A DNA stretch of 64,000 bases from NCBI RefSeq assembly GCF_000151315.2, contig NW_011887306.1:296828-360827 (forward strand), written 5' to 3'. Below the pieces are notes generated by a model. The model worked only from the letters and a program-made list of their open reading frames with translations. It was not told the origin of the DNA and ran no database searches. The DNA comes from Capsaspora owczarzaki ATCC 30864 (Eukaryota > Opisthokonta > Filasterea). A program made the position numbers and the translations under genes. Below are positions 3,266 to 61,559 of the stretch, one piece after another (positions within the stretch are counted from its first letter, which is position 1; every line of letters begins with the position of its first letter).

Positions 3266-5627
3266 TCACATGTAGGCGTGCCAAGAACGTCGTTCGATGC
3301 ACCTGACGAGGTGCTGCTTGAGCAAAGCAGGAGGGAGCGGCTCATACAAGACGTCTTCAACACCGCTTGCCAGGATGCTGTCAATCAGCGAGGGCAGTGT
3401 GTTGGGAGGAACGACCACCATCAGTGACAAGTCGGCCGAGACGGGGTTTGCCCGCAGGCGCTGAAGAGTGGTCGGGGTGAACACAGCGAGGTCGCAAACG
3501 ACAATTTGGATTTTGGCGTCGTTCATGGCCAGCTTCACTTGATGCGCATACTCCTCCGAGGAGCGGAACTGAGGCGAAGTTGCGTGCATCTTTGTCATCA
3601 TTTCTATGGCAGCCTCCTTGGCAGAGCGGGCTACAGCGCCAATCAAGCCTTCAAGCTCTTCGACAGTCGAGGTGTTGGCACTGTCCAGGTTGGCCGACTG
3701 TGTAGCGTGCTGAAACGCGTCCCAGTTGGCGCGGTTTTGGGAAATGCTCATCACACGCGGACGCGCGGTGGGTTGCGTTCCTTGCGTCCCAGAGTGTCCG
3801 AGACCCGGAGTGGGCAATGGAGTTGAGTCCGCCGAGCTTCCGGGAAAGTACGTGTGGCTCAGGTGCGGCAAGCCCGCGGAGCGCGAATTCGTGGAAGCCA
3901 TGGAGCTGCAAGATGCCGAGGTCGTCAAGCCGCCGTGGCCACTGTTGCGGGCATTGGCATTGGAGAACATGCGCTGGGCGTCGAGCAGCAAGTCTGAAAA
4001 GTCACTGGAATACATCGACTCGAATGAGAGCTTGCGAGCACCACCTCCCAGAGACGTGATCGACCTGAGACCCTGCGAGTGGTCCAAGCGAGCGCGCTTT
4101 GGCGATGCACTTGGGAGGGTCGTGAATGGGAAGGCAGTGCTGCCTTGCTGGATCATGGGCGAAGGCGTGTGGTTGCGGCTCGCCAGAGAGTGCGCGGGCG
4201 AGAGACTGGCGGTCGAGTCGACGGCATCCATCTCGGAGACGGTCCGGTTTCGTCGGGCGGTGATGCGTGTCGGAATCGGCGTGGGCGGAGTCGGCGCCGA
4301 GGACAGCGCCGCTGAGCGTGAGCGTTCCGGCTCAAAGCAGAGCGGCAAGAATTGCGGGCGCAGCGGCGTGCCGTCGTCCGTGGTGGCCGGGGAGAGCATG
4401 TCGGCGCCGCCAAACGACGAGCGACGCACGGGTGCTCGCTGAGGTCCCACCATTGCCACTGGGATGGGCGACGCCTCGCCTGCGGACGAGTCGTCCTGAT
4501 TCTCCAGCGCTTGAGTGAGGGCGCGCGCCGTCTCAATGTCGCCCCTGGCACGGTCGGTGAAGGCGCGGGCGAACGGGTTGTGGCTAATCTTGAGGGCGCG
4601 AATGTTGGGGTTGCAGTAGGCGGTGACGGCAATAAATTGGGTCTCTTCAAACAGCTGCGAGTGCACCAGGCGATGTCCAGGCAGGTGCATGCGGTTGGCG
4701 CCAGCTGGAGCCTCCAAGTCCACCTCGAGCATGCTGGACTCGTCCTCCGCGAGCGGCTCAAACACTTGGACGCAGAAAATGTACTTGTGGAGGGCATGCA
4801 GCAGGACGGCGTCGCTGGTAGTCGAGGTGATTTCGTTGTTGGTGATTTTAAAATCAAACATGAAGGGGTGTTCAACCCAGACCGAGCCCAACGCTGGCGA
4901 GCTGTTGTGCACAAACTGCGTCACAACATTGCAGTCCAGCGACTTGGAGGTGGGCACTTCCGCCCAGGCCTCACCGACATAGCGGTGGGCGACTTTGGAG
5001 GCCTAGACCAAGAAAAGCAACCCATCCAAACCAAATGAATACATGCACACCAAACCAACCGCAAGGAATTGAGCAAAACAAAAACAAAAAGGACGTAAAC
5101 AGACGAAGGAGAAAAATTAGCAGAGTTGGAGCGCATGTTAAAAATGACACGACTAATTAAGAACGAATTGCGAATTGCGAACAACAATGATAAGCGGTCA
5201 AGCGGTCAACGCTCAAAATGGATTGACCAATGGCTGAAGACGTGAACTGCGCAATTCGCATTCACGACCGCAACAACCGCCAGAGCGACCAACAGAAGAA
5301 GAAAAAAAAAAAAAAAAAAAAAAAAGCCAACCAGTTCCTTCAGGAATCTCCCGAGGAATGAAAGAATGGAAGGCATTCAATAGACTACGAGATGAGATAG
5401 ATATGATAGATAGGAGGACAAATAAAAAAAAGGAAACAAGAGTAGAGGAAAGCGAAACAAGCCGACAAGTCGATGACTCAGGCGGAGAAACTCCAATCCC
5501 ATCGAATGAAACAACGACTCGCACCAATGGTTCATGCCCCCTCCGCCGCCACCGTAAAAAAGCGAACTCCAATCGCACCACAATTAGCGGAGCTATTAGA
5601 AGATCAAACGCTCGACTTTTCGATGCG

Positions 5628-5663
<36 letters not shown>

Positions 5664-7794
5664 GCTCCAAAACAAGCGAATCACAAAAGACAAAATAATC
5701 CGGACCATCCGCCCACCGCTTCTTTTAAAAGAACATCAACAAAAAAGGATACGAGGAAAAAAAAAGTGGGTCTGAACTTGCTCTTCTAGCAAGCAAGAAA
5801 AAAAAAAAAGGAAAAATGCACGAGAGGGGGCTTCTTCGACGTACCGGGACAAAGTTGATGACAATGGAGAAGGAGCGGTGCTCGGGGAGGCCGGTGATGG
5901 TGAAGCTCGGCGTTGGGAAGAGGCGACGCCCCTTCTTGGTCAAAATCATCTCATTGCCGTGGCGGAAGAAAGTCCGCCAGAGCTCCTCTTTCTCCAGTGC
6001 AATGTGGACGCCGGGCATGCTGATGAGGCGGAGTGGGCTGCCCATTGTGAACTGCACGCGGCGGGAGCAGGGCTGATCGACAGAGGCAGTGCTCAGAGTT
6101 CTGCGTCGGGACCCCGATTCGGTCGCCTGCTGCTGCGGGTGCTGTCCTGCGGCCACCGACAGGGTTGATCCTGCGAGAGCTGCGCGAGTCGACATTGACG
6201 AGAGAATCTGCTGCAGCTGCTGAGCCTGCTCGGTGAGCTGGGCTGTTCCGGGCCGCGACCCAGATTGGGACGTGATTTCGCCGAATGCGGTTTGTTGGTG
6301 GAGCTGTTCGAGCCAGGGCTCGGCGGCCTCACGCTCCAGGTCCATCAGCTGCTGCTGCTGTTGATGATGATTCTGCGAAAAGCGCTGGTGGAGCTGTGGC
6401 TGCTGATGCTGCTGCGTGAGGCGCATGGGTTGCTGGTTGTCAAGGAGCATCAGGGTATGCGAAGATGTCGCGTTCGACCTGCCCAAATTTCCGCCCACGA
6501 GCGAGTCGTCATAAAAGGCCGAAACTGCGTTGCGAGCAGATGCGGGCGAGCCGTTGGGTGCTGAGCTGGTCGCGCTGCTGGCGCTGCTGTAACTCACGCG
6601 GTGAAGAGCATTTTGGTAAACAGCGCCAGTGCTGGTGCTGGTGCTGCTGCTGCTGCAGGTGTCGTGGACAATGCTGCTGCTATTGGTCATGTTACCACCA
6701 TTTTGGATATTGGTGTTTCCGCCCATTCTCACGGGTGCTGACAAGTCCATGGCGAATTGCTGCTGAGCTGCGGCCGCCTGAACCATTGCAGACGTCAATA
6801 TCGAGTGCGGTGCAGAGGCTGCAGGGGGCAGGACGTTGCGGGTGGCGGTGTTGTTGTTGTTGATGTTATTGTTGTTATTGTTGTTGTTAACGTCGGTGAC
6901 GAATTTCACACCAGAATTCCCAGCGAATGAAGAGTGCACTTCCATTTGTGTTTTGACGCCGTTGTTGTTGTTGTTGTTGTTGTTGTTTGCGGTGCTGCTG
7001 CTGCTGGCATTGGCGTGAAGGTTGTTGCTGTTGTCAATGGGCTTGCCCATGCTGAGCGAGTCGCTGGCAGCGTTGATGCGCGAGGCATTATTGGCGCTGG
7101 AATGGAAGGGGAATATTTCGTCGCCCAATTTTGGGGAGCCCGACCAATCCAACCCCTCCAACTCCTGTGACCCCAGCAGCGGCGAGAAGCCCAGCGACGA
7201 AGCGGTGGGCGACTGCGACTGCGACGACGAAAGTAGGGGCAGTGCGCTGGCCGTCAGCTTGAAGGCCGACTCGGGGCGCTGGAAGAGGAAATTCGCATTG
7301 TTGGCTGCGTTGGCTGCGTTTGCTGCGTTTGTTCCGTTTGTTGATGCTGCTACTGCGCCAGACGATGCTGCCGACGCTGCCGCCGCCTGAGTCATGGCCG
7401 CACATGTTGCCTCCGTTGTCATCGCCATTAAGGCTGGAATGGTCGCGTCGGGCATGACTACATCCGACGTAATCACGAACGGGCTTGGCGCAGATTTGTT
7501 ATTTTGATCCAAATCTTTGGTGCGTGCCAGCATTCCATTGGCGCCCTTGCTGCTGTCGTTGCTGTCGTTGCTGTCGCTGCTGGCGCTGGATGCATTGCTG
7601 GTCGACGTGTTGCTGAATCCAGCGTTCACCGAGGCTGCGCGGGCAATCGGCGGGACTGCATTTGGAGGGAAGCGTGTTGCGTCGCTGCTTCTGTTTCTGC
7701 TGTTGCTGCTACTTGTGCTGTGACTTGGTCTGCTATTGCGTGCATTGAATGGGGGTGGTTGATGCTGCTTTGTCTGATGCTGATGCTGCTGGTC
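3266..7794 (-). CDS. T-box transcription factor with a receiver-like C-terminal domain
   Basis: Sequence-specific DNA-binding transcription factor. Two exons are clear: 7794 (or further upstream) to 5845, and 5002-3266, joined in phase 0 across an 842 bp intron (GTACGT...CTAG). The T-box is split by that intron. The first half has ELWRTFFRHGNEMILTKKGR and ends IVINFVP; the second half has FKITNN, LHKY, FIAVTAYCNPNIRALKI and NPFARAF. The usual TAYQN is TAYCN here. Upstream is a long S/N/Q-rich region with poly-Q and poly-N. Downstream is a Ser/Pro-rich linker, then about 85 residues that look like the second half of a bacterial-type receiver domain. Start unresolved: the first in-frame ATG is at 7533, but the frame is open to 7794, where an in-frame TAG could be a splice acceptor (TAG|GAC), implying another 5' exon. 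From 7533 the protein would be about 1,141 residues. It is T-box by clear similarity; Brachyury versus another class cannot be decided. Confidence 0.88.
5003..5844 (-). other. Intron of the T-box gene
   Basis: An 842 bp intron, several times longer than the typical intron in this window. It contains long A runs (plus strand) near 5298-5324 and 5629-5658. Donor GTACGT after IVINFVP and acceptor CTAG before the next T-box residues keep the T-box in phase. No other gene is seen inside. Confidence 0.8.
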
Positions 7795-12581: not shown

Positions 12582-12707
12582 ATGCCGCCACCACTAGGGA
12601 ACAACTCGGACTGCAAGTTCGAAATCCGCGAAGTGTGGGAGTACAACTTGGAGGAGGAGATGGCAGTAATACGCGATGTTGTGCAGGACTATCCGTACCT
12701 GGCAATG
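12582..12707 (+). CDS. CNOT7: CNOT7/CAF1 deadenylase, exon 1 (orphaned from exons 2-4)
   Basis: The first 42 residues of the CCR4-NOT complex deadenylase, starting MPPPLGNN, with [13 protein letters not shown] and ending YPYLAM at a GTAACG donor. In the family the next residues are DTEFPG, which carry the first two catalytic acidic residues. Those residues start exon 2, which here lies at 15820-15627 on the opposite strand. The plus-strand sequence after the donor enters the left arm of an inverted repeat at 12887 and carries no compatible exon. As assembled, exon 1 cannot be spliced to the rest of its gene unless the intervening segment is inverted. The upstream C/T-rich stretch at 12471-12580 looks like 5' UTR or promoter. 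Confidence 0.85.
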
Positions 12708-12886
12708 GTAACGCTCTCTCTCTTTCGCTCTCACTCGCTTTCCCCCCCCCCGCCCCCTTCCGCCTCCGTCCAAAGCACTTCATTCTCATCTTCGTCCAGT
12801 TGAACTCTGTGCTTTCGTGTTCAGTGACTCAAGCGAAGGGGGGGGGGAAAGACAGTTTCCCTCTTTTTTTTTTTTCTCGTTCGTTT

Positions 12887-14283
12887 CAAGCGATGGCTGC
12901 CCCTCGAGTCCAACCCCGAAGTGCGTTTGTTTTCGTGCTTCATTACGTGCTTCATGGCGAATTGCTGGATGGAGAGAGTGAGAGTGAGAGAGCGGGATTC
13001 GCATCGTAAGTCAAAGCCTCACTGTTGAACTAACTCGTCCTTCTGTTTGGTGAATCCAGGTTATGAACAAGGTACAACACCCAAACCACATGCATCTCCA
13101 ACACATCATCCTCTCCAGGGCGCCAACGTTTCTGGGCTGGGTCGCCAGACAGACAGACAGAGAGCGAGTGATGACGAAGGCCTTTATGCTGTTCTCGATT
13201 GGCGTTTACGTCACTGCTCCCAACGCTGATCCGCTCACATCCACATCGGATGGCGCGATTCGTCATCCTTCAATTCTGATTGACTGATTGTTGTTGATTG
13301 TTGTTGATTGTTGTTGGTAGTTTGTCTGGTCGCTGGGCCTGCCGCGAAAGTGGGGCTTCACGGACGTCTACGGCCTCGATGCAGACCTCCTCGCAATGGT
13401 CCCGCAGCCCGTCGTGGCAGTCATGATGCTCTTCCCTGTCACCAAGCCACACGAAGACCACCGCGTCGCAGAGGACGAGCGCATCCAGGCAGAAGGGCAA
13501 ACACTCAGCCCCAATGTCTACCATCTGAAGCAGACCATTGCAAACGCCTGTGGCACTGTTGGCGTGCTTCATGCTGTTGCAAACAACAAGGACCGATTGG
13601 AACTCCGTATGTACCTTGACAGCGGGATGAGGCGTTGCTCTCAAAGCGAGAGTTTTGCCGATCTGACCTGAACTCTTCGTTGTTGTTGTTGCCGGTTTTC
13701 TCTGGTTGTCTGGACACACAGCGGAGGACTGCTATCTGCGCAGGTTTGTGGAGAACGGCTCCGCCAAGACGTCAGAGGAGCGCGGTGAGCAGCTCGAGGT
13801 CAGCGAAGAGGTGACCAATGTGCACGAAGAGTGTGCCAACGAGGGCCAGACTGAGGTAGGGGCTTTTCGCTTTGTAGAGTTGGAGAGTATTGTACAAAGT
13901 GTTGTTTGTGATTCTGCATGTGCTTTTGTTGCCTGTCAAGTGGTTGGATGGTGTTTGAACAAGGGTGTCTGATCTCGTCGTTTAACTTTGCACCTTTCCA
14001 ACCCTCCCCCCTTTTTATGGTTCCCCTTTCTTTGGCTCCCCTCCAACAGACACCCTCGCTTGACGATGACACCTTTTTGCACTTTGTGTGCTTGATCGAG
14101 CGTGATGGCTTCCTGTACGAGCTGGATGGCCGCAAGTCCTTCCCGATCAACCACGGCCCGTCCAGCCAGCAAACCCTGCTCGAAGACGCCGCCAAGGTCG
14201 TCCAAAAGTTCATGGATCGCGACACTTCCCAGGTGCAGTTCAACATGATTGCCTTGACCGAGTTGCCTCAGGACGCCGAGTGA
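12887..14283 (+). pseudogene. UCHL3: UCHL3-like ubiquitin hydrolase, 5'-truncated copy
   Basis: Second copy of the UCHL3 gene, in the left repeat arm. Exons by comparison with the intact copy: 12887-12920 (from within exon 1), 13060-13071, 13321-13606, 13722-13855 and 14050-14283. The first 15 residues, including the start codon, are missing because the arm begins inside exon 1; the sequence just before it is CNOT7 intron 1. Catalytic Cys (IANACGTVG), His (DTFLHFVCL) and Asp (YELDGRK) codons remain intact. With no start or promoter of its own it is probably not expressed as a normal protein, though near identity means no decay has yet occurred. Confidence 0.85.
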
Positions 14284-15458
14284 TGTTTGCTGGTGCTTTT
14301 GTTTTTCTGTTCTTTTTTTTTTTTTTTCCCTTTGTGATGTTGCTTGTTTCCACCTGTGTGTAAAGCTTTGTTGTGTTGAATGTCAATTGAACAAATCAGC
14401 TATCTTTCAACGTTTTCTTCTTTTTTTTGTTTGAAAATAAGAGTCAATGGCATCCAGATCACAAAAAGTCGACAAAAAGAAACCCAAACGAACAAAAAGG
14501 TCTTACATGTAAACGCACAGCAGACCAGAACAAGAAGCAACAAGGACATCATTCAACGGGAGGGGTGGGAGAAGCAAAAAAACTGAGGAGAGCCCAGACA
14601 GCAGACACATGTGTGCATCTTGAAAACTCGCCCAGTTTTTAGTACTTTCGTGCATTCACGACATTGTTGGCCATGACCGTGCTTGGAGACTGAGGGACGG
14701 CGTTACTGAACGGCTTGGCACCGCCGTTGAGGCCGTAGTTGCTGGGTGGTGTGCCGGGAGCACTGCTGGCGGCGTAGGTGCCGTTGCTGCCTGCTCCAGG
14801 GGTGGTTGAAGGTGAGTATGGGGCTCCGCTGGTGGCGGGCGTGGTGGCGCTTGATGCTGGCCCTTCCAACTTGCTGAGGTAGGATGTGCCGAGACCGTAA
14901 ATGTGGCCTTGGAACTTGGAGTCGTCAATGTTGTCCTCAAAGAAGAGCTGTCGCATCTTGAAGAAGGCGAACGCGGTCAGCATGCTGTCGCTGCCCGCTT
15001 GGTGTTGAGGGCCGTATCGCTCCACCTCCAGGTCGTCGCTGACGTCTTGCAGGCCGCCCTTCAAGTGCTTGCAGCTTCGCATCATGAACTTGATGTCATA
15101 AATGCAGGGGAAGTACAAGTACAACAAGGAGAAAAAGTCTGATTCTTCCGTTGGCAGCGCGGTGCACGTTAGAACCTTGAGCAAGTATGCAAAGTCGTAT
15201 CCACTGCGAGCGGAAGAGCAAGGGGCGGGTGTGAAAGAAGTGGGGAAGGCAGCAAGAGTGGCGCAAATGGGAAAAAGAAAGGGAAAAAAGTCAGACACGT
15301 GGGTGCAAGAGTGCCACACTTTGTCGAGTATGTCAAAATATCATCAACAAACCTGTGGAAGGAAATCCATTTGATTTGATCGTTCAGCACGATGCCAGAG
15401 GGAATGAGCAACTCGGCAAAGTGGTGGACATCAATGCCGTCGGCTTCAAACCGCATGA
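12887..15458. repeat. Left arm of a large inverted repeat
   Basis: This 2,572 bp segment is the reverse complement of 16072-18645. By eye I find only about four single-base differences and one 2-nt length difference in an A/T run (near 14576 versus 16948), so identity is above 99.5%. The arm starts within UCHL3 exon 1 and ends within CNOT7 exon 3. Left-arm position x pairs with about 31532-x on the outer side and 31530-x on the inner side. The outer edge shares AAGCGAT (12888-12894) with the inverted sequence at 16057-16063 near the spacer end. Confidence 0.95.
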
Positions 15459-15820
15459 AATTGATGCCAGAGCGTGTCAACAAGTCGATCGAATCCTGTG
15501 CGTATGTATCCTCTCTGTCAAGTGCAAGAACATAGCCCCCAAAGAGCAAATGGCCATGTCAGTGTCAGGTGCAGGCCATCCAAATCTCAAAATGAAACAA
15601 AAAAAAAAGTGCCTGTTCCAACTCACGATAGGCTGAACTTGAAGTTAAACTGCCATGTGCACACGTCTTTTGGTGTGTTTCCGTGCTCGTCAGTGAAGGT
15701 GATGCCCAGCTGGATCAGCTTGAGACGGTCAACGTTGCAGCGGAGGGTCTGGAACGTGAACTCGGCCTGCGATCGGAAGTTGCCCACTGGTTTTACAACC
15801 ACGCCGGGGAACTCTGTGTC
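14639..15820 (-). CDS. CNOT7: CNOT7/CAF1 deadenylase, exons 2-4 in reverse orientation
   Basis: Catalytic body of the CAF1/CNOT7 poly(A) exonuclease (DEDD family). Exon 2 is 15820-15627 (DTEFPGVVVKPVG, with the first catalytic D and E), exon 3 15514-15353 (EDTYAQDSIDLL through WISFH), exon 4 15203-14639 (SGYDFAYLLKVL, GPQHQAGSDSMLT, FFEDNIDDSKF, then a Ser/Thr/Gly-rich tail ending NARKY). Phases join cleanly, and with plus-strand exon 1 would give 348 residues. No exon 1 precedes exon 2 on this strand between 15821 and 16071. Exon 2 and the first part of exon 3 lie in the unique spacer; the rest lies in the left repeat arm and is duplicated on the plus strand at 16072-16891. As assembled this copy lacks a start codon. 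Confidence 0.85.
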
Positions 15821-16071
15821 CTATTGTTTTTGATTTCGTTTTCGGATTGTTGCAACAATTGCAAGTGACAAAGAGTCAGACGATGTGTATGGCACAGCAA
15901 AGTGATGAGTAAGCAATGGGCGATCAGTTTTGACTTGCGTTTGTCCACTCCGTCTCTCCACTCCCCCCCCCCTCCACGCCAACGCGATTCTCGTCAGTGA
16001 TCATCCATTTTCAGCATCAACGTCCAGTGACCATCCCAATGGACAGTCGTGCTGGAATCGCTTAAAGAGCC
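15459..16071. other. Spacer between the inverted repeat arms
   Basis: A 613 bp unique segment. It carries CNOT7 exon 2 and the 5' part of exon 3 on the minus strand, plus about 250 bp of intron-like DNA (15821-16071). Flipping only this segment would place exon 2 and the start of exon 3 on the plus strand, in frame with the exon 3 remainder at 16072. Confidence 0.85.
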
Positions 16072-16891
16072 TCATGCGGTTTGAAGCCGACGGCATTGAT
16101 GTCCACCACTTTGCCGAGTTGCTCATTCCCTCTGGCATCGTGCTGAACGATCAAATCAAATGGATTTCCTTCCACAGGTTTGTTGATGATATTTTGACAT
16201 ACTCGACAAAGTGTGGCACTCTTGCACCCACGTGTCTGACTTTTTTCCCTTTCTTTTTCCCATTTGCGCCACTCTTGCTGCCTTCCCCACTTCTTTCACA
16301 CCCGCCCCTTGCTCTTCCGCTCGCAGTGGATACGACTTTGCATACTTGCTCAAGGTTCTAACGTGCACCGCGCTGCCAACGGAAGAATCAGACTTTTTCT
16401 CCTTGTTGTACTTGTACTTCCCCTGCATTTATGACATCAAGTTCATGATGCGAAGCTGCAAGCACTTGAAGGGCGGCCTGCAAGACGTCAGCGACGACCT
16501 GGAGGTGGAGCGATACGGCCCTCAACACCAAGCGGGCAGCGACAGCATGCTGACCGCGTTCGCCTTCTTCAAGATGCGACAGCTCTTCTTTGAGGACAAC
16601 ATTGACGACTCCAAGTTCCAAGGCCACATTTACGGTCTCGGCACATCCTACCTCAGCAAGTTGGAAGGGCCAGCATCAAGCGCCACCACGCCCGCCACCA
16701 GCGGAGCCCCATACTCACCTTCAACCACCCCTGGAGCAGGCAGCAACGGCACCTACGCCGCCAGCAGTGCTCTCGGCACACCACCCAGCAACTACGGCCT
16801 CAACGGCGGTGCCAAGCCGTTCAGTAACGCCGTCCCTCAGTCTCCAAGCACGGTCATGGCCAACAATGTCGTGAATGCACGAAAGTACTAA
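16072..16891 (+). pseudogene. CNOT7: CNOT7/CAF1 3' fragment (end of exon 3 and exon 4)
   Basis: Starts inside exon 3 at the repeat edge (MRFEADGIDV...), splices at 16177|16178 (GTTTGT) to exon 4 at 16327, and stops at 16889-16891. The protein is the same as the minus-strand copy except one Pro/Leu change in the Ser/Gly-rich tail. The preceding bases (up to 16071) do not continue the CNOT7 reading frame. This is in the orientation expected for the ancestral gene, because exon 1 at 12582 is also on the plus strand. It would be functional if the spacer were inverted. Confidence 0.85.
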
Positions 16892-18645
16892 AAACTGGGC
16901 GAGTTTTCAAGATGCACACATTCGTCTGCTGTCTGGGCTCTCCTCAGTTTTTTTTTGCTTCTCCCACCCCTCCCGTTGAATGATGTCCTTGTTGCTTCTT
17001 GTTCTGGTCTGCTGTGCGTTTACATGTAAGACCTTTTTGTTCGTTTGGGTTTCTTTTTGTCGACTTTTTGTGATCTGGATGCCATTGACTCTTATTTTCA
17101 AACAAAAAAAAGAAGAAAACGTTGAAAGATAGCTGATTTGTTCAATTGACATTCAACACAACAAAGCTTTACACACAGGTGGAAACAAGCAACATCACAA
17201 AGGGAAAAAAAAAAAAAAAGAACAGAAAAACAAAAGCACCAGCAAACATCACTCGGCGTCCTGAGGCAACTCGGTCAAGGCAATCATGTTGAACTGCACC
17301 TGGGAAGTGTCGCGATCCATGAACTTTTGGACGACCTTGGCGGCGTCTTCGAGCAGGGTTTGCTGGCTGGACGGGCCGTGGTTGATCGGGAAGGACTTGC
17401 GGCCATCCAGCTCGTACAGGAAGCCATCACGCTCGATCAAGCACACAAAGTGCAAAAAGGTGTCATCGTCAAGCGAGGGTGTCTGTTGGAGGGGAGCCAA
17501 AGAAAGGGGAACCATAAAAAGGGGGGAGGGTTGGAAAGGTGCAAAGTTAAACGACGAGATCAGACACCCTTGTTCAAACACCATCCAACCACTTGACAGG
17601 CAACAAAAGCACATGCAGAATCACAAACAACACTTTGTACAATACTCTCCAACTCTACAAAGCGAAAAGCCCCTACCTCAGTCTGGCCCTCGTTGGCACA
17701 CTCTTCGTGCACATTGGTCACCTCTTCGCTGACCTCGAGCTGCTCACCGCGCTCCTCTGACGTCTTGGCGGAGCCGTTCTCCACAAACCTGCGCAGATAG
17801 CAGTCCTCCGCTGTGTGTCCAGACAACCAGAGAAAACCGGCAACAACAACAACGAAGAGTTCAGGTCAGATCGGCAAAACTCTCGCTTTGAGAGCAACGC
17901 CTCATCCCGCTGTCAAGGTACATACGGAGTTCCAATCGGTCCTTGTTGTTTGCAACAGCATGAAGCACGCCAACAGTGCCACAGGCGTTTGCAATGGTCT
18001 GCTTCAGATGGTAGACATTGGGGCTGAGTGTTTGCCCTTCTGCCTGGATGCGCTCGTCCTCTGCGACGCGGTGGTCTTCGTGTGGCTTGGTGACAGGGAA
18101 GAGCATCATGACTGCCACGACGGGCTGCGGGACCATTGCGAGGAGGTCTGCATCGAGGCCGTAGACGTCCGTGAAGCCCCACTTTCGCGGCAGGCCCAGC
18201 GACCAGACAAACTACCAACAACAATCAACAACAATCAACAACAATCAGTCAATCAGAATTGAAGGATGACGAATCGCGCCATCCGATGTGGATGTGAGCG
18301 GATCAGCGTTGGGAGCAGTGACGTAAACGCCAATCGAGAACAGCATAAAGGCCTTCGTCATCACTCGCTCTCTGTCTGTCTGTCTGGCGACCCAGCCCAG
18401 AAACGTTGGCGCCTTGGAGAGGATGATGTGTTGGAGATGCATGTGGTTTGGGTGTTGTACCTTGTTCATAACCTGGATTCACCAAACAGAAGGACGAGTT
18501 AGTTCAACAGTGAGGCTTTGACTTACGATGCGAATCCCGCTCTCTCACTCTCACTCTCTCCATCCAGCAATTCGCCATGAAGCACGTAATGAAGCACGAA
18601 AACAAACGCACTTCGGGGTTGGACTCGAGGGGCAGCCATCGCTTG
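16072..18645. repeat. Right arm of the large inverted repeat
   Basis: The 2,574 bp inverted copy of 12887-15458. It contains the 3' part of CNOT7 on the plus strand and almost all of UCHL3 on the minus strand. Beyond its outer end at 18645 the UCHL3 gene continues to its ATG, so the right side has the native UCHL3 context. Confidence 0.95.
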
Positions 18646-18689
18646 TTGCCAGACGGAGTTGGGCGAAAGTCGCTGGTAGACTCAGACAT
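17249..18689 (-). CDS. UCHL3: Ubiquitin carboxyl-terminal hydrolase, UCHL3/YUH1 type (intact copy)
   Basis: Cysteine protease that removes small adducts from the ubiquitin C-terminus. Exons: 18689-18612, 18472-18461, 18211-17926, 17810-17677, 17482-17249; 247 residues, close to human UCHL3 (230). Seen: WLPLESNPE, DVYGLD, the oxyanion Gln and catalytic Cys in LKQTIANACGTVG, catalytic His in DTFLHFVCLIERDG, and Asp in YELDGRKSFPINHG. Exon 2 is only 12 nt and encodes VMNK between NPE and FVWSLGL, which matches the family alignment exactly. The gene converges on CNOT7 and shares a 397 bp divergent upstream region with the ARF-like gene. A 5'-truncated near-identical copy lies at 12887-14283. Confidence 0.93.
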
Positions 18690-37632: not shown

Positions 37633-38619
37633 NNNNNNNNNNNNNNNNNNNNNNNNNNNNNNNNNNNNNNNNNNNNNNNNNNNNNNNNNNNNNNNNNNNN
37701 NNNNNNNNNNNNNNNNNNNNNNNNNNNNNNNNNNNNNNNNNNNNNNNNNNNNNNNNNNNNNNNNNNNNNNNNNNNNNNNNNNNNNNNNNNNNNNNNNNNN
37801 NNNNNNNNNNNNNNNNNNNNNNNNNNNNNNNNNNNNNNNNNNNNNNNNNNNNNNNNNNNNNNNNNNNNNNNNNNNNNNNNNNNNNNNNNNNNNNNNNNNN
37901 NNNNNNNNNNNNNNNNNNNNNNNNNNNNNNNNNNNNNNNNNNNNNNNNNNNNNNNNNNNNNNNNNNNNNNNNNNNNNNNNNNNNNNNNNNNNNNNNNNNN
38001 NNNNNNNNNNNNNNNNNNNNNNNNNNNNNNNNNNNNNNNNNNNNNNNNNNNNNNNNNNNNNNNNNNNNNNNNNNNNNNNNNNNNNNNNNNNNNNNNNNNN
38101 NNNNNNNNNNNNNNNNNNNNNNNNNNNNNNNNNNNNNNNNNNNNNNNNNNNNNNNNNNNNNNNNNNNNNNNNNNNNNNNNNNNNNNNNNNNNNNNNNNNN
38201 NNNNNNNNNNNNNNNNNNNNNNNNNNNNNNNNNNNNNNNNNNNNNNNNNNNNNNNNNNNNNNNNNNNNNNNNNNNNNNNNNNNNNNNNNNNNNNNNNNNN
38301 NNNNNNNNNNNNNNNNNNNNNNNNNNNNNNNNNNNNNNNNNNNNNNNNNNNNNNNNNNNNNNNNNNNNNNNNNNNNNNNNNNNNNNNNNNNNNNNNNNNN
38401 NNNNNNNNNNNNNNNNNNNNNNNNNNNNNNNNNNNNNNNNNNNNNNNNNNNNNNNNNNNNNNNNNNNNNNNNNNNNNNNNNNNNNNNNNNNNNNNNNNNN
38501 NNNNNNNNNNNNNNNNNNNNNNNNNNNNNNNNNNNNNNNNNNNNNNNNNNNNNNNNNNNNNNNNNNNNNNNNNNNNNNNNNNNNNNNNNNNNNNNNNNNN
38601 NNNNNNNNNNNNNNNNNNN
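37633..38619. other. Assembly gap (N)
   Basis: 987 undetermined bases. It separates the LSM4 start from the Tc1/mariner element. All open frames crossing it are artefacts. Confidence 0.99.
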
Positions 38620-38714
38620 CAATCCACGCGATGTTGCGGGAAGGGTTGTACCCGAATGCATTGCGGTCACACAGAGATTTTTTACGGGTAGTGTTCGACA
38701 TAGCCAACATACTA

Positions 38715-38828
38715 TCCCGATCATTAAATTTCGACCCCCCCCTCTTTTTTTCACTTTTTCGCCCTCCCTGGGACCTGTGTTGCTTTCCGTCTCGCCCCGC
38801 GGAATGTTCATTCATGGTACGGTGTACC
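38715..38828 (+). repeat. Left terminal inverted repeat of the Tc1/mariner element
   Basis: Matches the reverse complement of 40240-40351 with a few mismatches, including C-run length differences and one change in GGTACGGTGTACC. Confidence 0.93.
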
Positions 38829-38965
38829 GAACGTCTGATGAACACCGGGAGCGGGGGTTGTGAGTCATATCAGAGCAGCAGCGAGCAAAATAAAAAATAT
38901 AAGGAAACTCAAAAAATTCACTTTTCCCGCCCAAATTTTGGTTTGGGTTCAGTCTTTTTGTGCGC

Positions 38966-40075
38966 ATGACTCGCACACGCAGTCAGTCCACGTCCCGCGT
39001 GGCTCCCAGACAGCCCCCGGTATGGCTGCGTCCAACTTCACCAAAAAGACCGCTGCCCGTGCTGGACAAGATGCCCAGGGAGGTCGTCCGCGGTCAAGTG
39101 CTCGCGTTGCGAAATGCTGGCCTCTCCTACAACAAGATCGCCACCCAGCTTCACCTCCCACGTTCTACAGTGATCAGCATCACCCAACGTTTCTCGGGAA
39201 GGGCGACGACGAGCGACAGCCCCCGCCCCGGTCGCCCCAGCAAGCTCAAGTCATTTCACCGCAACAACATTGTAGCACAGATCCTCCTCGATGAGTCCGA
39301 CACCGCACCCGAAGTGGCCGCCACTATGCGCACATTGTCCAAAGTTCGTGTCTCTCCATGCACGATAAGAAGGGTGCTGCATGGTGCAGGACTTGTCAAC
39401 GGAGCGAAGGTCAAAAAAGCCCTCTTGAAAGAGACACACAAAGAGCGACGCTTGGCCTTTGCACTCGCTCATCAGCATTGGACCGTCGATGACTGGCTGA
39501 GGGTCGTCTTCTCTGACGAGACTGCTCTCTATCTCTGCAAGAACAACAACTGTGGACCGGTTGGCGAAACGTTGACCGATCGATGCGTGCAGGGCACGGT
39601 CAAGTTCGGCGGTGGCCATATCAATGTTTGGGGCGCCATCTCTCGTTTCGGAATTTCGCTTTTCTGCGAGGTCGGCGACGTCATGAACGGCGACACCTAC
39701 CTCTCAGTTTTGGAGAGCGAGTTGCTAGCAAGCATTCGCGTGTGGAACAACAAAAACGAGATGATTTTCATGCATGACAATGCCCCTTGTCACAAAAGAA
39801 AAGATGTGGCGAAGTGGTTCGAAACCAATCAGATCACCGTCCTGGACTGGCCTGCGAACTCTCCCGACCTCAACCCCATCGAAAATGCGTGGAACATGGT
39901 CAAGAACAAGATCTACCAGGAGAGGGAGATCAAGAGCAAGGCCGCGTTGTGGGAACGCTTCCAAGCGGTCTACGAAGAAGTGCTCACGCCAGAGGTCTGC
40001 CGCGATCTCATTTCATCGATGCCGCGCCGCATTCAAGCTGTGATAGATGCCAATGGTGGTTATACCAAGTACTGA
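38966..40075 (+). CDS. Tc1/mariner transposase (DD34E)
   Basis: Cut-and-paste transposase of 369 residues from ATG 38966. The N-terminal half has a helix-turn-helix region (RNAGLSYNKIATQLHLPRST) and a second one (VSPCTIRRVLHGAGL). The catalytic triad is visible: first Asp in VVFSDETALYL, second Asp in FMHDNAPCHK, Glu in SPDLNPIENAWNMVK. I count 34 residues between the second Asp and the Glu, the Tc1-type spacing. No frameshift or stop is seen, so it may be active. Confidence 0.96.
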   Translation: MTRTRSQSTSRVAPRQPPVWLRPTSPKRPLPVLDKMPREVVRGQVLALRNAGLSYNKIATQLHLPRSTVISITQRFSGRATTSDSPRPGRPSKLKSFHRNNIVAQILLDESDTAPEVAATMRTLSKVRVSPCTIRRVLHGAGLVNGAKVKKALLKETHKERRLAFALAHQHWTVDDWLRVVFSDETALYLCKNNNCGPVGETLTDRCVQGTVKFGGGHINVWGAISRFGISLFCEVGDVMNGDTYLSVLESELLASIRVWNNKNEMIFMHDNAPCHKRKDVAKWFETNQITVLDWPANSPDLNPIENAWNMVKNKIYQEREIKSKAALWERFQAVYEEVLTPEVCRDLISSMPRRIQAVIDANGGYTKY

Positions 40076-40239
40076 AGTGGAGCGAAGGCGCTGCGACACG
40101 TTGTTTGTGTGCCATGTAATGCTTTGTGAAAATTGGGCAAAAAAGCCGCTCTTTTTCTGTTTTTTTGAGTTTTCATTTTTGTCTGTTCTCGCTTCGAATC
40201 TTAACTCCCAGCCCGCTGCTTCACTTCTAAAATGTGTCT

Positions 40240-40351
40240 GGTACACTGTACCATGAATGAACATTCCGCGGGCGAGACGGAAAGCAACACAGGTCCCAGG
40301 GAGGGCGAAAAAGTGAAAAAAAGAGGGGGGGTCGAAATTTAATGATCGGGA
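40240..40351 (-). repeat. Right terminal inverted repeat of the Tc1/mariner element
   Basis: Inverted partner of 38715-38828, ending at the TA duplication at 40352-40353. Confidence 0.93.
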
Positions 40352-42307
40352 TAGTAGAGCGATTCCAGCACCACCTCGGCTTGAGATATGGAGGGTTGAA
40401 CTTGAACTCCCCACCCCTCGCGCATTTGTCGAAGGATGGTCGCTGGCAGGACCATCACAACCTGAATGTCGTAACCGATGACAGCTGGTTTCACAGTACG
40501 CTTGTACCGAACAGCACCTTGCTCATCTCGGACAATCAAATCGACAACGGGATTAGTTGTGGCATCGAAACAGCCCGGCCAGTTACGAACCACTTGAATT
40601 GCTTTCACGCGGATCGAACTTCCGTTGCTGCCCCGAGGCACTGTAACATGCAGATCCTGCAAATGCGGCAACACCTGTTCTCGTTTGATGCCCTGCACGC
40701 CTTGCCAGTACTGCGCCTCGTTCATAATGAGTTCAGCAATCTCGGCTGGTAGTGCTGGTAGCGCTGCTGATTGATCCTCCAGCTCTTGTCTGCTGGTCAG
40801 CAAGCAAAGTACTGTCTGAACATCGTCGGCGGTTGCTAATCGTGGATGTATGGAGAATGCAAGAGGGTGAAACTGGTTGCTGAGGCTGTGCAACGAACAA
40901 TTACAGTAAGTGGGCAGTCAGCACTACCATTCATGGTTCGAGGAACATTGGCAGAGGGGGGGGGAGATGGCGCTCTCATGTTCAAGTTCCAAAATGGACA
41001 CCTACGTAGGATATGCCGACCCGGTGACTGAAAGAAATGCCCTGTCGATCATTTGAATACCAGCAATGCCCATGCAATTAAAAAGTAGGCTGTTGTCCCA
41101 ATGGGGTGAGCAGGATGCACAAGCTAGCAAGATCTGGACCCGAAGTTCTGGACCCGAAGTTCTGGACCCTGGCTCAATGTCCGAGACGAGCAAAACGCAC
41201 AGCAACTTACTCGAGGTGTCTCAATGTGATATTTTGGGTGATCGCTCGAGCAAACGCAATTGCTCCAGCATCGCCAATCCGATTCATGTCCAAACTGTTA
41301 ACGCCCTAGCTCAGTGAATACTCTGAATGCTCCTCTGCTGGATGACCCACTCGTGGATGCTTCAGCAACAGTGGGATGCCTTACACGAGCGTAATCACAT
41401 TTGTGTTCACTTCGAGCGCCCGAGCCAACGCCTTCGCTCCAGCATTGCCAATCCAGTTCCGCTCAAAACTGCCCGTCTCATCCGTCAGTGAGCGCTCTGA
41501 ACGCCCTCTGCTGCAACCACCCACATCACATGCATCCGTCCAAGCGAGCTGCTTTACTTGAGCTCGGTCAGCGTCTTGTTCCCCTTGAGTGGCTCAGCAA
41601 TTGCCTTCGCTCCGGCATCGCCTATCTGATTGTTGTGCAGACTGTTCATCCCCTCCATCGGTGAGTACTGAATGCTATCTGGCTGAGTCACCCACTCACA
41701 AGCATCAGTCAAAGTGAGATGCTTTACTCAAGATAAGTCACCGTCGTGTTCACTTTGAGTGCTTCGGCGATCGCCTGCGCTCCAGCATCGCCAATCTGAT
41801 TGCTACTCAGACTGTCCCCCCCCCCAGTGAGCTTGCGATGCTCTCTACTAGATCACGCACTCCAATGCATCATTCAAAGTGAGATGCCTTACTCGAGATA
41901 TTCCAGCGTCTTGTTCACCTTGAGTGCCTCGGCAATTGCCTTCGCACCCACTTCGCCAATCAGATTCCGGTGCAGACTGTCATTCCCCTCCATCGGTGAG
42001 TTGAAACCGTCAACTCACATGCATCAGTCAAAGTGAGATCTCTCACCTGAGCCGGATCAGCGTCGTGCCCACTTTGAGTGCCTCAGCAATCGCCTGCGCT
42101 CCAGCATCGCCAACCCTACAACCAGCCAGGCTGTCCACGTCCCAATCTCTCAATGAGCACTCCAAGCAGCCCACTGCTAAAGTCGCCCACTCACATGCAT
42201 CTGCTCAAAGTGAGATGCCTTACGCGAGATCAGCCATCGTCTTGCTCACCTTGAGCGCTTCAGCAATCACTTGCGCTTCAGCAGCGCCAATCTGATCGTC
42301 CATCGCA
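40339..42307 (-). CDS. Leucine-rich-repeat protein with a conserved C-terminal domain, stop codon altered by transposon
   Basis: LRR gene of the ribonuclease-inhibitor type. Eight exons of exactly 84 nt each encode one 28-residue repeat: 42307-42224, 42130-42047, 41976-41893, 41811-41728, 41641-41558, 41468-41385, 41294-41211, 41089-41006. All are phase 2 in and out. The consensus is L..NQIGDAGAKAIAEALKVN.T with drift in the first and last repeats. The last exon starts at 40885 and encodes about 180 residues including LPAEIAELIMNEAQYWQG, a C-terminal domain I do not recognise. Without the Tc1/mariner element the reading frame would end ...LESLY-TAG; the insertion breaks that TAG, and the frame now runs into the transposon for four residues (YPDH) to a TAA at 40339. 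The 5' exon with the start codon was not found upstream of 42307, so the gene is incomplete at its 5' end. Confidence 0.75.
41006..42307 (-). repeat. Tandem array of LRR exon-intron units, about 170 bp each
   Basis: Exon starts are spaced 154-205 bp, mostly 165-177. Introns are also alike: several contain CACTCACATGCATC-type sequence followed by TCAAAGTGAGATG next to the donor. The whole exon-plus-intron unit has been duplicated in tandem. Confidence 0.85.
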
Positions 42308-42752
42308 CTGTCCCACATCCCCCCTCCCATTTTCGTCAACACATGCAGTCCGACTCGAACTGTCATCACACAGTTCCAGTACACACACGGCTTGGTTCTT
42401 CACCTGCAGAAGCGACCCTGGTCCCTGACTTTGAGATACAACTGGCGCTGTTGTGCAGTCATCACAAACGACAGCATTGCAGCTGGAAAAGGCTCCCCTT
42501 TGAAAAATGGACTGCCTTTTCACCATCATCGTTCATAGTCAAGTTCATAGTTCATGATGATGATGATGATGATGATGAGACCTGAACATCATTCAAATCC
42601 TTGTTTGACGAAAGGGATAGTGAATAAGATACAGGAAAGAACCAAAAACAAAAAAAGCTCAGTCTCCCTCCCTTTCAAGTTTGGTTTCGTTTTTCTCAGT
42701 TTTCTTCTCAGTTCTCAGACAGTCCCGTTCTCAGCAAATTCATTCCAAACAA
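42308..42752. other. Intergenic region, LRR gene / ABHD18
   Basis: About 445 bp. A (GAT)n run lies near 42554-42576. The missing 5' exon of the LRR gene may be here: an ATG at 42529 opens a frame with a possible donor at 42404|42403, but its phase 0 does not fit the phase 2 of the first repeat exon. Confidence 0.4.
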
Positions 42753-59604: not shown

Positions 59605-61334
59605 TGTGGGAATAATGTGTTGAGCTTCTTTCAAAAAAAGAGGAATGGAAAGATTTGGAAAATGTGAATGTGGATTTCTATTGTTACAAACATCCAATTT
59701 GCATGGGGATGGAAGATTTGACATTCCATTGAGGGGAAATTCATCTAGAAAATTGCAAACAGAACAAAAAAAAAAAAAAAAAGAGCAATTGAACAGAGCA
59801 GAACAGAAGCGAGTTATCGTTGTGTCTTTCAATGCCACGTGCATGGAGCATAGAGACATGTCAGATTCATTGTGCGAGTCGTTTCCAGATGAAATAGCGA
59901 GAAAGAACGGGGAAATAAAACAAAACTAGGAGAAAAAAAAGTAGCTGCAGTAAGACTACCCCATTGCCTCTCCTCGGCGCGCACAACGTGAGCTCGGTTG
60001 CAAAACGTCGAGAAGGCGTTCATTAACGAGGCGGCTGCATGGCTTTTGACAGCCTCGCATTAGAACACGCCTCCACTTCGCGCTCAAGCAACGAGGTTAC
60101 AGCTCATCAACCTGCATGGGAGACTTGTCTTTGTTGAGCAACAAAGACGGGATGCAGACTAAAGAAATGATCCTTTAGAGTGCGGTCTTACCGAACAAAT
60201 GCAACTGCAAAAAACTCAAATCGACAAAAAGAGGCCGAGTGCTCATCCACGTGTGACCATGAGGACGGCCGTTCGCCAAATTCGTGCGTTTCAATTATGG
60301 GAGATGGCCAAAATTACGTCTTCCTTAACAAATTGGTAGTGATAAATGAACTGTCGATGATCGACAGCCTGCTGCTTCGGACTGAGCGTGTGGCCTCGCG
60401 GGCAAACGTGATCTCGTAAAAAAAAACTTGAATAGGTCTCCCGTTGTACCGCCAATACAGCGTTCGGCTGGTTGAAAATTATCGGAATCATGTGTTTGCG
60501 TATATGGCACAAATGTGACATGCGTGTACAGCCGCAGCTGAGTTGGGAGAATGGGAGGACGGAAAGGGGGGGGGGAAGAACGCGATTCAAAAAAAGGGTT
60601 GCGCTTGCATGCCGCATTGCACTGGGGCTGGATGGAGAGTGTTAAAATCCCGGACTGGACAAGAAGGGTACTCGGGTGTGGGAGCATGGCAAGACCAGGA
60701 GTGAGGAGAGGTTGGTTGGAAAGTTGAAAACAAAAGATCGAAAAACAAAAACCTGCACGGCGTTTTCGTTTTGTATCCTGACTTGCTGACCAGTCATGTG
60801 GCTGCTGGAGCTCACTCCTCATGCTTCTTTTCCCTTCTCTATTGCATGTCTACATGTACTGTCAATACTTTTAGGGCGAAGGGACCGGTTGGTACAACGA
60901 GAGCGAGAAAGGTTGCCGGAAGAATCAACGCAGTCAAAAATCAACGCGATTGTTCGGCCATCGTTTTGTGCGCTCTAAACCAAGTCACGCCGCCCAGCAA
61001 AACCACTCCAATATTAGGTACAACCACTTCGGCCATTGAAAACTGCGAGCTCGTGTTATATTCTAAGATCGTTCCACGAGGATACGAGTAATGGGTTGAT
61101 GATGAGAGTAATAATAGGGAAACAAGAGACTTCACTTATACAAAGCAACAAGTGAACACTCAAATACAGATACAAATCAATCCATAACACCTCGACCGAG
61201 AGCGGTTTGCTTGTTTTGTTCTTTCCACTCCTTCATGTTTCAAATTGTCATTCCAGCCTGTCGACTTATTTTTCCACTTTAGTTGTGTTTCTCAGTCTTC
61301 TTTCTTTTTTTTTTTCTTTTTTTTTTTGCCAACA
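59605..61334. other. 1.7 kb region upstream of AHCY, no gene recognised
   Basis: Includes the AHCY promoter next to 59605 and the upstream region of the LRR gene at 61335. Short open frames on both strands (for example 60771-61091 plus) lack recognisable domains. No tRNA or snRNA was identified by eye. Confidence 0.45.
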
Positions 61335-61559
61335 ATGCTGTCGCATCAGAGTATGACTCGGAGACAGCGCGAGTTGTATGATAAAGTCAAGAATGCGAGA
61401 GGAGAACTGAGGTTAGTAGCCGAAGCTATTGCAACAGTGTGACTGCGCGTGTATTGACTGTACAGCATGGAGGAAAGCTTGCCAGAGGAAGAGATTGGCG
61501 ATGCTGGCGCGAAGGCGATTGCTGAGGCACTCAAAGTGAACACGACGCTGACTTGGCTC
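61335..61559 (+). pseudogene. Second LRR gene, 5' part, truncated by a LINE
   Basis: Exon 1 (61335-61411) starts MLSHQSMTRRQRELYDKV and ends in phase 2 at GTTAGT. Exon 2 starts at 61466 and encodes SMEESLPEEEIGDAGAKAIAEALKVN.TLTWL, the same repeat type as the LRR gene at 41-42 kb and in the same phase. In that gene the exon would end 2 nt after the codon at 61557-61559; here the sequence instead switches to LINE reverse-transcriptase coding. No LRR sequence follows to the window end. It shows what a 5' exon of this gene family looks like. Confidence 0.65.

What the first reader, a model, noticed from the sequence alone, without database searches (positions are those of the whole stretch)
12582..18689. 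A 2.57 kb near-perfect inverted repeat splits CNOT7 and duplicates UCHL3
Arms 12887-15458 and 16072-18645 are reverse complements with about four single-base differences and one 2-nt indel. CNOT7 exon 1 is on the plus strand, exons 2-4 on the minus strand, and a second exon 3 remainder plus exon 4 on the plus strand. UCHL3 exists as one intact copy and one lacking its first 15 codons. CNOT7 is a core deadenylase, so a fixed disruption is surprising. An assembly error, a recent inverted duplication (template switching) or a heterozygous rearrangement could each explain it.
Basis: partly seen in the sequence, partly recalled or inferred. Interest (0 to 1): 0.85.

Follow-up and report, generated by a model that had tools for sequence, protein, structure and literature searches.

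The report
Likely misassembled duplicate splitting CNOT7 gene
A 2.6-kilobase stretch of a protist chromosome appears twice in opposite directions and cuts a key RNA-decay gene in two, but turning one block around makes both genes whole, so it is more probably an assembly mistake or a harmless recent duplication than a truly broken gene.

Summary
CNOT7 exon 1 lies on +, exons 2-4 on -; UCHL3 is present once whole and once without its first 15 codons. A family search of this 27.5-Mb draft found no other CAF1-type gene except one that reads as PARN-like. The CNOT7 exons are undecayed and CNOT1 keeps its CAF1-docking domain, so a fixed break is unlikely. One reversal explains the map: block 12887-16071 (3185 nt) is backwards. 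Turned round, CNOT7 is collinear and the arms become direct copies, like an unmerged overlap; collapsed, exon order of both genes is normal. Almost equally open is a real inverted insertion at a break in intron 1, which leaves CNOT7 intact if the 613-nt spacer faces the other way, or a heterozygous change. No reads were available. Verdict: CNOT7 is probably intact in living cells; artefact slightly favoured.

The parts
12582..12707 (+). CNOT7 exon 1 (42 codons, ends in phase 0, GT donor at 12708)
12887..15458 (+). left arm of the inverted repeat (2572 nt)
12888..14283 (+). UCHL3 copy without its first 15 codons: exon 1 remainder 12888-12920, exons 13060-13071, 13321-13606, 13722-13855, 14050-14283 (positions mirrored by hand from the right copy)
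14639..15820 (-). CNOT7 exons 2 (15820-15627), 3 (15514-15353) and 4 (15203-14639); exon 2 carries the DTE motif; an in-frame stop lies directly upstream of exon 2
15459..16071 (.). 613-nt single-copy spacer (3' part of CNOT7 intron 1, exon 2, intron 2, first part of exon 3, all on -)
16072..18645 (-). right arm of the inverted repeat (2574 nt)
16072..16891 (+). second copy of CNOT7 exon 3 remainder (16072-16177) and exon 4 (16327-16891; positions mirrored by hand from the left copy)
17249..18689 (-). intact UCHL3 gene, five exons, 247 aa
12887..16071 (.). 3185-nt block whose reversal restores CNOT7 exon order and turns the arms into direct copies

Best explanation
An assembly artefact in a gapped draft. 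A piece of 3185 nt (12887-16071 = spacer plus one arm) was joined in reverse orientation between the piece that ends in CNOT7 intron 1 (12886) and the piece that starts in CNOT7 exon 3 (16072), and the 2.57-kb overlap of the latter two was not merged, perhaps because the two versions differ by a few allelic or consensus bases. In the organism the locus would hold one CNOT7 gene on + and one UCHL3 gene on -, convergent and intact. Shown: the arrangement, the single-copy spacer, and that reversing this one block and merging the overlap puts the exons of both genes in normal order. Inferred: that the reversal happened in assembly rather than in the chromosome.
For: Reversing one block puts CNOT7 exons 1-2-3-4 in order on + and leaves the arms as two copies on the same strand 2572-2574 nt apart; merging these gives one CNOT7 and one UCHL3 in normal order. 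PF04857 gave 4 matches in the genome: three from this locus and one that reads as PARN-like (named by eye), yet the CNOT7 exons show no decay: joined, they give 348 aa without a stop and match human CNOT7 at E 1.6e-115. CNOT1 keeps its CAF1-binding domain in an open frame, E 1.3e-88. The sequence is a draft with N runs of 469, 987, 4607, 10480 and 29148 nt within 264 kb. Neither new join shows microhomology at the breakpoint itself, and both lie at arbitrary points within exons or an intron. The end at 12886 lies within 60 nt of a homopolymer run of at least 10, true of 10% of random window positions, a weak hint of a contig end; the other three boundaries do not.
Against: There is no N at either new join (the window's 987 N are the one run at 37633-38619), so each join should rest on at least one read or on a gap-filling step; two false joins are needed. 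A 2.57-kb overlap at 99.8% would normally have been merged. The arms differ at three places by substitution plus one indel, which suggests two real copies or two haplotypes. No second near-identical duplication other than the Tc1-type pair and a 159-nt direct repeat was seen in the 218 readable kb around it. How the assembly was made is not known to me, and no reads were available.
Confidence: 0.47

Rival explanations
1. A real, recent inverted insertion. A double-strand break in CNOT7 intron 1 was repaired by fold-back or strand-switch synthesis: one end copied 2.57 kb of the neighbouring CNOT7-UCHL3 DNA backwards and the other end was captured by end joining. The direct fold-back product would be exon 1 - inverted copy - spacer in native orientation - right arm, which leaves CNOT7 intact with a 3.0-kb intron 1; the assembly then shows the spacer the wrong way round, since short reads cannot orient 613 nt between 2.6-kb inverted repeats, or recombination between the arms has flipped it in some cells. 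Inferred throughout; only the sequence arrangement is shown.
For: The ends at 12886 and 16071 would abut before the event, as expected of one break, though the artefact reading predicts the same. Reversing only the spacer restores CNOT7 exon order, with intron 1 of 3004 nt. Seamless joins and sequence differences between the arms. The shape, inverted copies around a single-copy spacer, is that of fold-back duplications (PMC3907307, abstract and passages), and yeast makes small foldback insertions captured by NHEJ (PMC11724301, abstract and passages). Ku family matches exist on two contigs (3 matches).
Against: No microhomology exactly at either join, as far as the inferred pre-event site can tell; the nearby shared AAGCGAT 7-mer is expected by chance in 7% of random 40-nt pairs. 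A 3.0-kb intron would be far longer than the six unaffected introns of these two genes (112-249 nt). The yeast foldback insertions range from 2 to about 150 bp, the majority under 14 bp, far shorter than 2.57 kb.
Confidence: 0.25
2. A real rearrangement present on only one of two homologous chromosomes (or in part of the culture); the other allele carries intact CNOT7, and the draft shows the rearranged one or a mosaic.
For: The only CAF1 gene found would be disrupted otherwise; arm differences of about 0.2% could be allelic.
Against: Ploidy of this organism is unknown. The searches found no second copy of the spacer and no third copy of the arm on any contig, though a collapsed draft would not show one.
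Confidence: 0.18
3. A fixed disruption: the organism has lost functional CNOT7, and CNOT7 exon 1 may now splice in frame to UCHL3 exon 2 (both phase 0), making a CNOT7-UCHL3 fusion.
For: Literal reading of the assembly; exon 1 and UCHL3 exon 2 are in matching phase and give one open frame. On - the exon 2-4 fragment has a stop directly upstream of exon 2, which begins with the catalytic DTE motif.
Against: No substitute CAF1 was found; CNOT1 keeps its CAF1-binding domain; the CNOT7 exons are undecayed.
Confidence: 0.05

Closest known systems
False duplication or mis-oriented contig in draft assemblies (known from general knowledge; one search gave a listing only)
   Same: Near-identical copies as from an unmerged overlap, restored by one block reversal and one merge; a conserved single-copy gene is broken only in the assembly.
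   Different: Usually marked by N at the joins (recalled); here both joins are seamless.
Fold-back inverted duplications with a single-copy spacer (human CNVs, PMC3907307; yeast foldback insertions at breaks, PMC11724301; abstracts and passages seen)
   Same: Two inverted copies around a non-duplicated spacer.
   Different: Here the inverted copy is interstitial and rejoined to the other side; no inverted microhomology at the joins; yeast insertions are much shorter.
CNOT7/CAF1 deadenylase and UCHL3 (Peptidase C12)
   Same: The joined exons match human CNOT7 (E 1.6e-115, query residues 13-272) and human UCHL3 (E 1e-80, query residues 15-240).
   Different: Only the arrangement of the exons is odd; the proteins are ordinary.
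Invertible DNA segments between inverted repeats (recalled, no call)
   Same: A short spacer between long inverted repeats whose orientation decides whether a gene is whole.
   Different: No sign of both orientations was seen, and no recombinase was searched for.

Membership tests
CNOT7/CAF1 (PF04857) | full-length nuclease domain when exons 1-4 are joined in the presumed original order | tested here: met
   348-aa frame aligns to human CNOT7 residues 10-271; the catalytic roles of the conserved DTE, GYD and GSD residues are recalled
CNOT7/CAF1 (PF04857) | one continuous gene able to make that protein in the assembly as given | tested here: not met
   exon 1 on +, exons 2-4 on -; stop directly upstream of exon 2
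UCHL3 (PF01088) | whole C12 peptidase with start codon | tested here: met
   right copy 247 aa, residues 15-240 align to human UCHL3; the left copy lacks the start and first 15 codons
Assembly artefact (mis-oriented piece plus unmerged overlap) | one block reversal and a merge restore the exon order of both genes | tested here: met
Assembly artefact (mis-oriented piece plus unmerged overlap) | N at the joins | tested here: not met
   the 987 N of the window are one run at 37633-38619
Assembly artefact (mis-oriented piece plus unmerged overlap) | single-copy read depth over arms, no spanning reads | not testable with these tools
   no reads held
Fold-back inverted duplication | single-copy spacer between inverted copies | tested here: met
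   613-nt spacer, one match in the genome
Fold-back inverted duplication | inverted microhomology of 2 bp or more at the spacer-duplication join | tested here: not met
   no shared bases at the exact joins; PMC3907307 reports 2-8 bp in 13 of 18 non-repeat junctions and insertions in the other five
Invertible DNA switch | both spacer orientations present in one population | not testable with these tools
   no reads held; the assembly shows one orientation
Capsaspora owczarzaki ATCC 30864 (as source organism) | published coYki homology arms present in the genome | tested here: inconclusive
   0 matches for both 90-nt arms and for 30 nt with up to 2 mismatches; the DNA searches carry the tool's warning that an empty answer without a positive control shows nothing, and I ran no such control

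The most novel reading that the evidence does not exclude
The inverted repeat is real and the 613-nt spacer flips by recombination between the arms, so that the cell's only CAF1 deadenylase gene switches between an on state (exon 1 joined to exons 2-4 through a 3-kb intron) and an off state (the assembled one, with a possible in-frame CNOT7-UCHL3 fusion transcript).
Probability: 0.04. Interest if true: 0.8.

Novelty: not a real feature. Interest (0 to 1): 0.2.

Why it matters
If the duplication is an artefact, gene sets made from this draft would wrongly report CNOT7 as fragmented and UCHL3 as duplicated, and any statement on deadenylase loss in this lineage would be false. If it is real, it would be a recent kilobase-scale inverted insertion in a core RNA-decay gene, and a natural case for asking whether spacer inversion can switch a housekeeping gene. 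One long-range PCR or a few long reads would settle which.

Tried and rejected
Simple inversion polymorphism: a haplotype with only the block inverted would join the spacer to the flank at 18646, not to 16072; the observed second join excludes it, and merging two such haplotypes by overlap would need shared sequence at 16071/16072, which is not there. A transposon explanation: the arms hold CNOT7 and UCHL3 with their introns and intergenic DNA, gave only two matches in the genome, and the Tc1-type element lies 20 kb away. A second CAF1 gene making CNOT7 dispensable: the C16 hit reads as a PARN-like protein (named by eye, no family scan was run on it). Microhomology as proof of a real event: the shared 7-mer near the join is not at the breakpoint and arises by chance in 7% of random pairs. 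A hairpin at the left join was not stronger than in shuffles (167 of 200 shuffles folded at least as well). A frame leading into exon 2 on the - strand was looked for and ends in a stop at its border. An 18S rRNA search failed on the machine side and was not repeated. The Capsaspora guess came from genome size, contig layout, T-box genes and the Tc1-type family; three tests with published coYki sequence were empty. No paper in the held library has both 'Capsaspora' and 'CNOT7'. In one search the line on abutting arms found the first copy twice and shows nothing; the spacing is taken from the exon positions in the same output.
Full report
What was checked. The inverted repeat is present as described: 12887-15458 against 16072-18645, 2572 and 2574 nt, with four substituted bases at three places and one 2-nt indel in an A run. 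A search of the 27.46-Mb, 29-contig genome gave two matches for the arm and one for the 613-nt spacer.

Genes. Exon joins give CNOT7 of 348 aa from + 12582-12707 and - 15820-15627, 15514-15353, 15203-14639, and UCHL3 of 247 aa from - 18689-17249; the CNOT7 intron ends that were printed are GT and AG. They match human CNOT7 (E 1.6e-115, human residues 10-271) and human UCHL3 (E 1e-80, query residues 15-240). The left UCHL3 copy starts with the last base of codon 15; the first 14 residues lie outside the part aligned with human UCHL3, but the start codon is lost. In the assembled order I see no way to encode CNOT7: the frame into exon 2 on - ends in a stop at the exon border, and exon 2 begins with the DTE motif. 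Exon 1 and UCHL3 exon 2 share phase 0, so an in-frame fusion by splicing is possible; there is no evidence that it is made.

Is CNOT7 needed here? A PF04857 search of the whole genome gave 4 matches: three from this locus and one on contig C16 whose translation reads as PARN-like. The CAF1-binding domain of CNOT1 is intact on C2 (one match, E 1.3e-88). UCH-type peptidases: 8 matches, 6 from the two arms and 2 close together on C2, probably one other gene. Thus CNOT7 would be the only CAF1 found, its partner is kept, and its exons are undecayed. A fixed loss is improbable.

Why one orientation matters. Write A for sequence up to 12886, S for the spacer, R for the right arm, rc for reversal. The assembly reads A - Rrc - S - R - flank. 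Since Rrc - S is the reverse of (Src - R), the assembly is A - (Src R)rc - R - flank: one 3185-nt block placed backwards. Turning it gives A - Src - R - R - flank, in which CNOT7 exons are in order and the two R copies lie on the same strand, end to end; merging them gives convergent CNOT7 and UCHL3 in normal order, with intron 1 of 430 nt. Turning S alone gives A - Rrc - Src - R - flank: CNOT7 exons in order with the inverted copy inside a 3004-nt intron 1. Because the arms are nearly identical, the junction sequences of the assembled and the spacer-turned forms are the same locally; only molecules spanning a whole arm can tell them apart.

Artefact or real. For an artefact: a gapped draft (N runs of 469, 987, 4607, 10480, 29148 nt in 264 kb of C15; the 4607-nt one starts at the first base after the window and may be a withheld stretch), the economy of one reversal and one merge, no microhomology at the joins, a homopolymer run near 12886 (10% of random positions have as much), and the biology of CNOT7. 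For a real event: both joins are seamless, the arms differ by substitutions including two isolated transitions, and the only other near-identical repeats in the 218 readable kb around it were the Tc1-type pair and a 159-nt direct repeat.

If real, how. A single break in CNOT7 intron 1 suffices (inference). Either the right end folded back onto exon 3 and copied R until the left end captured it, which gives the CNOT7-intact form directly; or the left end annealed at the UCHL3 side, copied R and S to the broken end, and was ligated to the right end after that had lost 613 nt, which gives the assembled form directly. Fold-back duplications with single-copy spacers are described for human CNVs (PMC3907307, abstract and passages seen), and foldback synthesis with NHEJ capture for yeast (PMC11724301, abstract and passages seen), there at 2 to about 150 bp. 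Ku family matches exist on C8 and C11. The absence of microhomology at the joins fits these only in part.

Organism. But published coYki homology arms gave no match in three tests, without a positive control, and PMC9170242 speaks of missing NHEJ components in Capsaspora whereas Ku matches are present here. I therefore do not name the organism, and ploidy remains unknown.

Verdict. Observation confirmed; disruption of CNOT7 in the living organism not supported; artefact about 0.47, real duplication with intact or heterozygous CNOT7 about 0.43, fixed loss about 0.05. Read data would decide at once.

Noticed in passing
window 38736-40331 (two-copy alignment extends to about 38707-40360): Tc1/mariner-like element with terminal inverted repeats of about 90-120 nt; 19 of the 97 matches listed in the genome (itself included) cover the query end to end at 98-100% identity, so it was recently active.
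   Followed up: partly
window 37633-38619: 987-nt run of N next to the Tc1-type element, the only N in the window.
   Followed up: partly
window 4556-5011 and 5839-6003, - strand: Two PF00907 (T-box) matches, E 7.6e-23 (one stop inside) and 4.5e-14, perhaps exons of one gene; the other four matches lie on contig C9.
   Followed up: no
window 59945-60189, - strand: U3 small nucleolar RNA (Rfam RF01848, 62.9 bits).
   Followed up: no
window 41357-42332: Six tandem copies of 137 nt at 154-177 nt spacing, five of them 61-80% like the reference copy, with inverted relatives at 61492-61559; longest open stretch 96 aa.
   Followed up: partly
G000 C15:360828-365434 (just right of the window): 4607-nt run of N that begins at the first base after the window, perhaps a withheld stretch rather than an assembly gap.
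   Followed up: no
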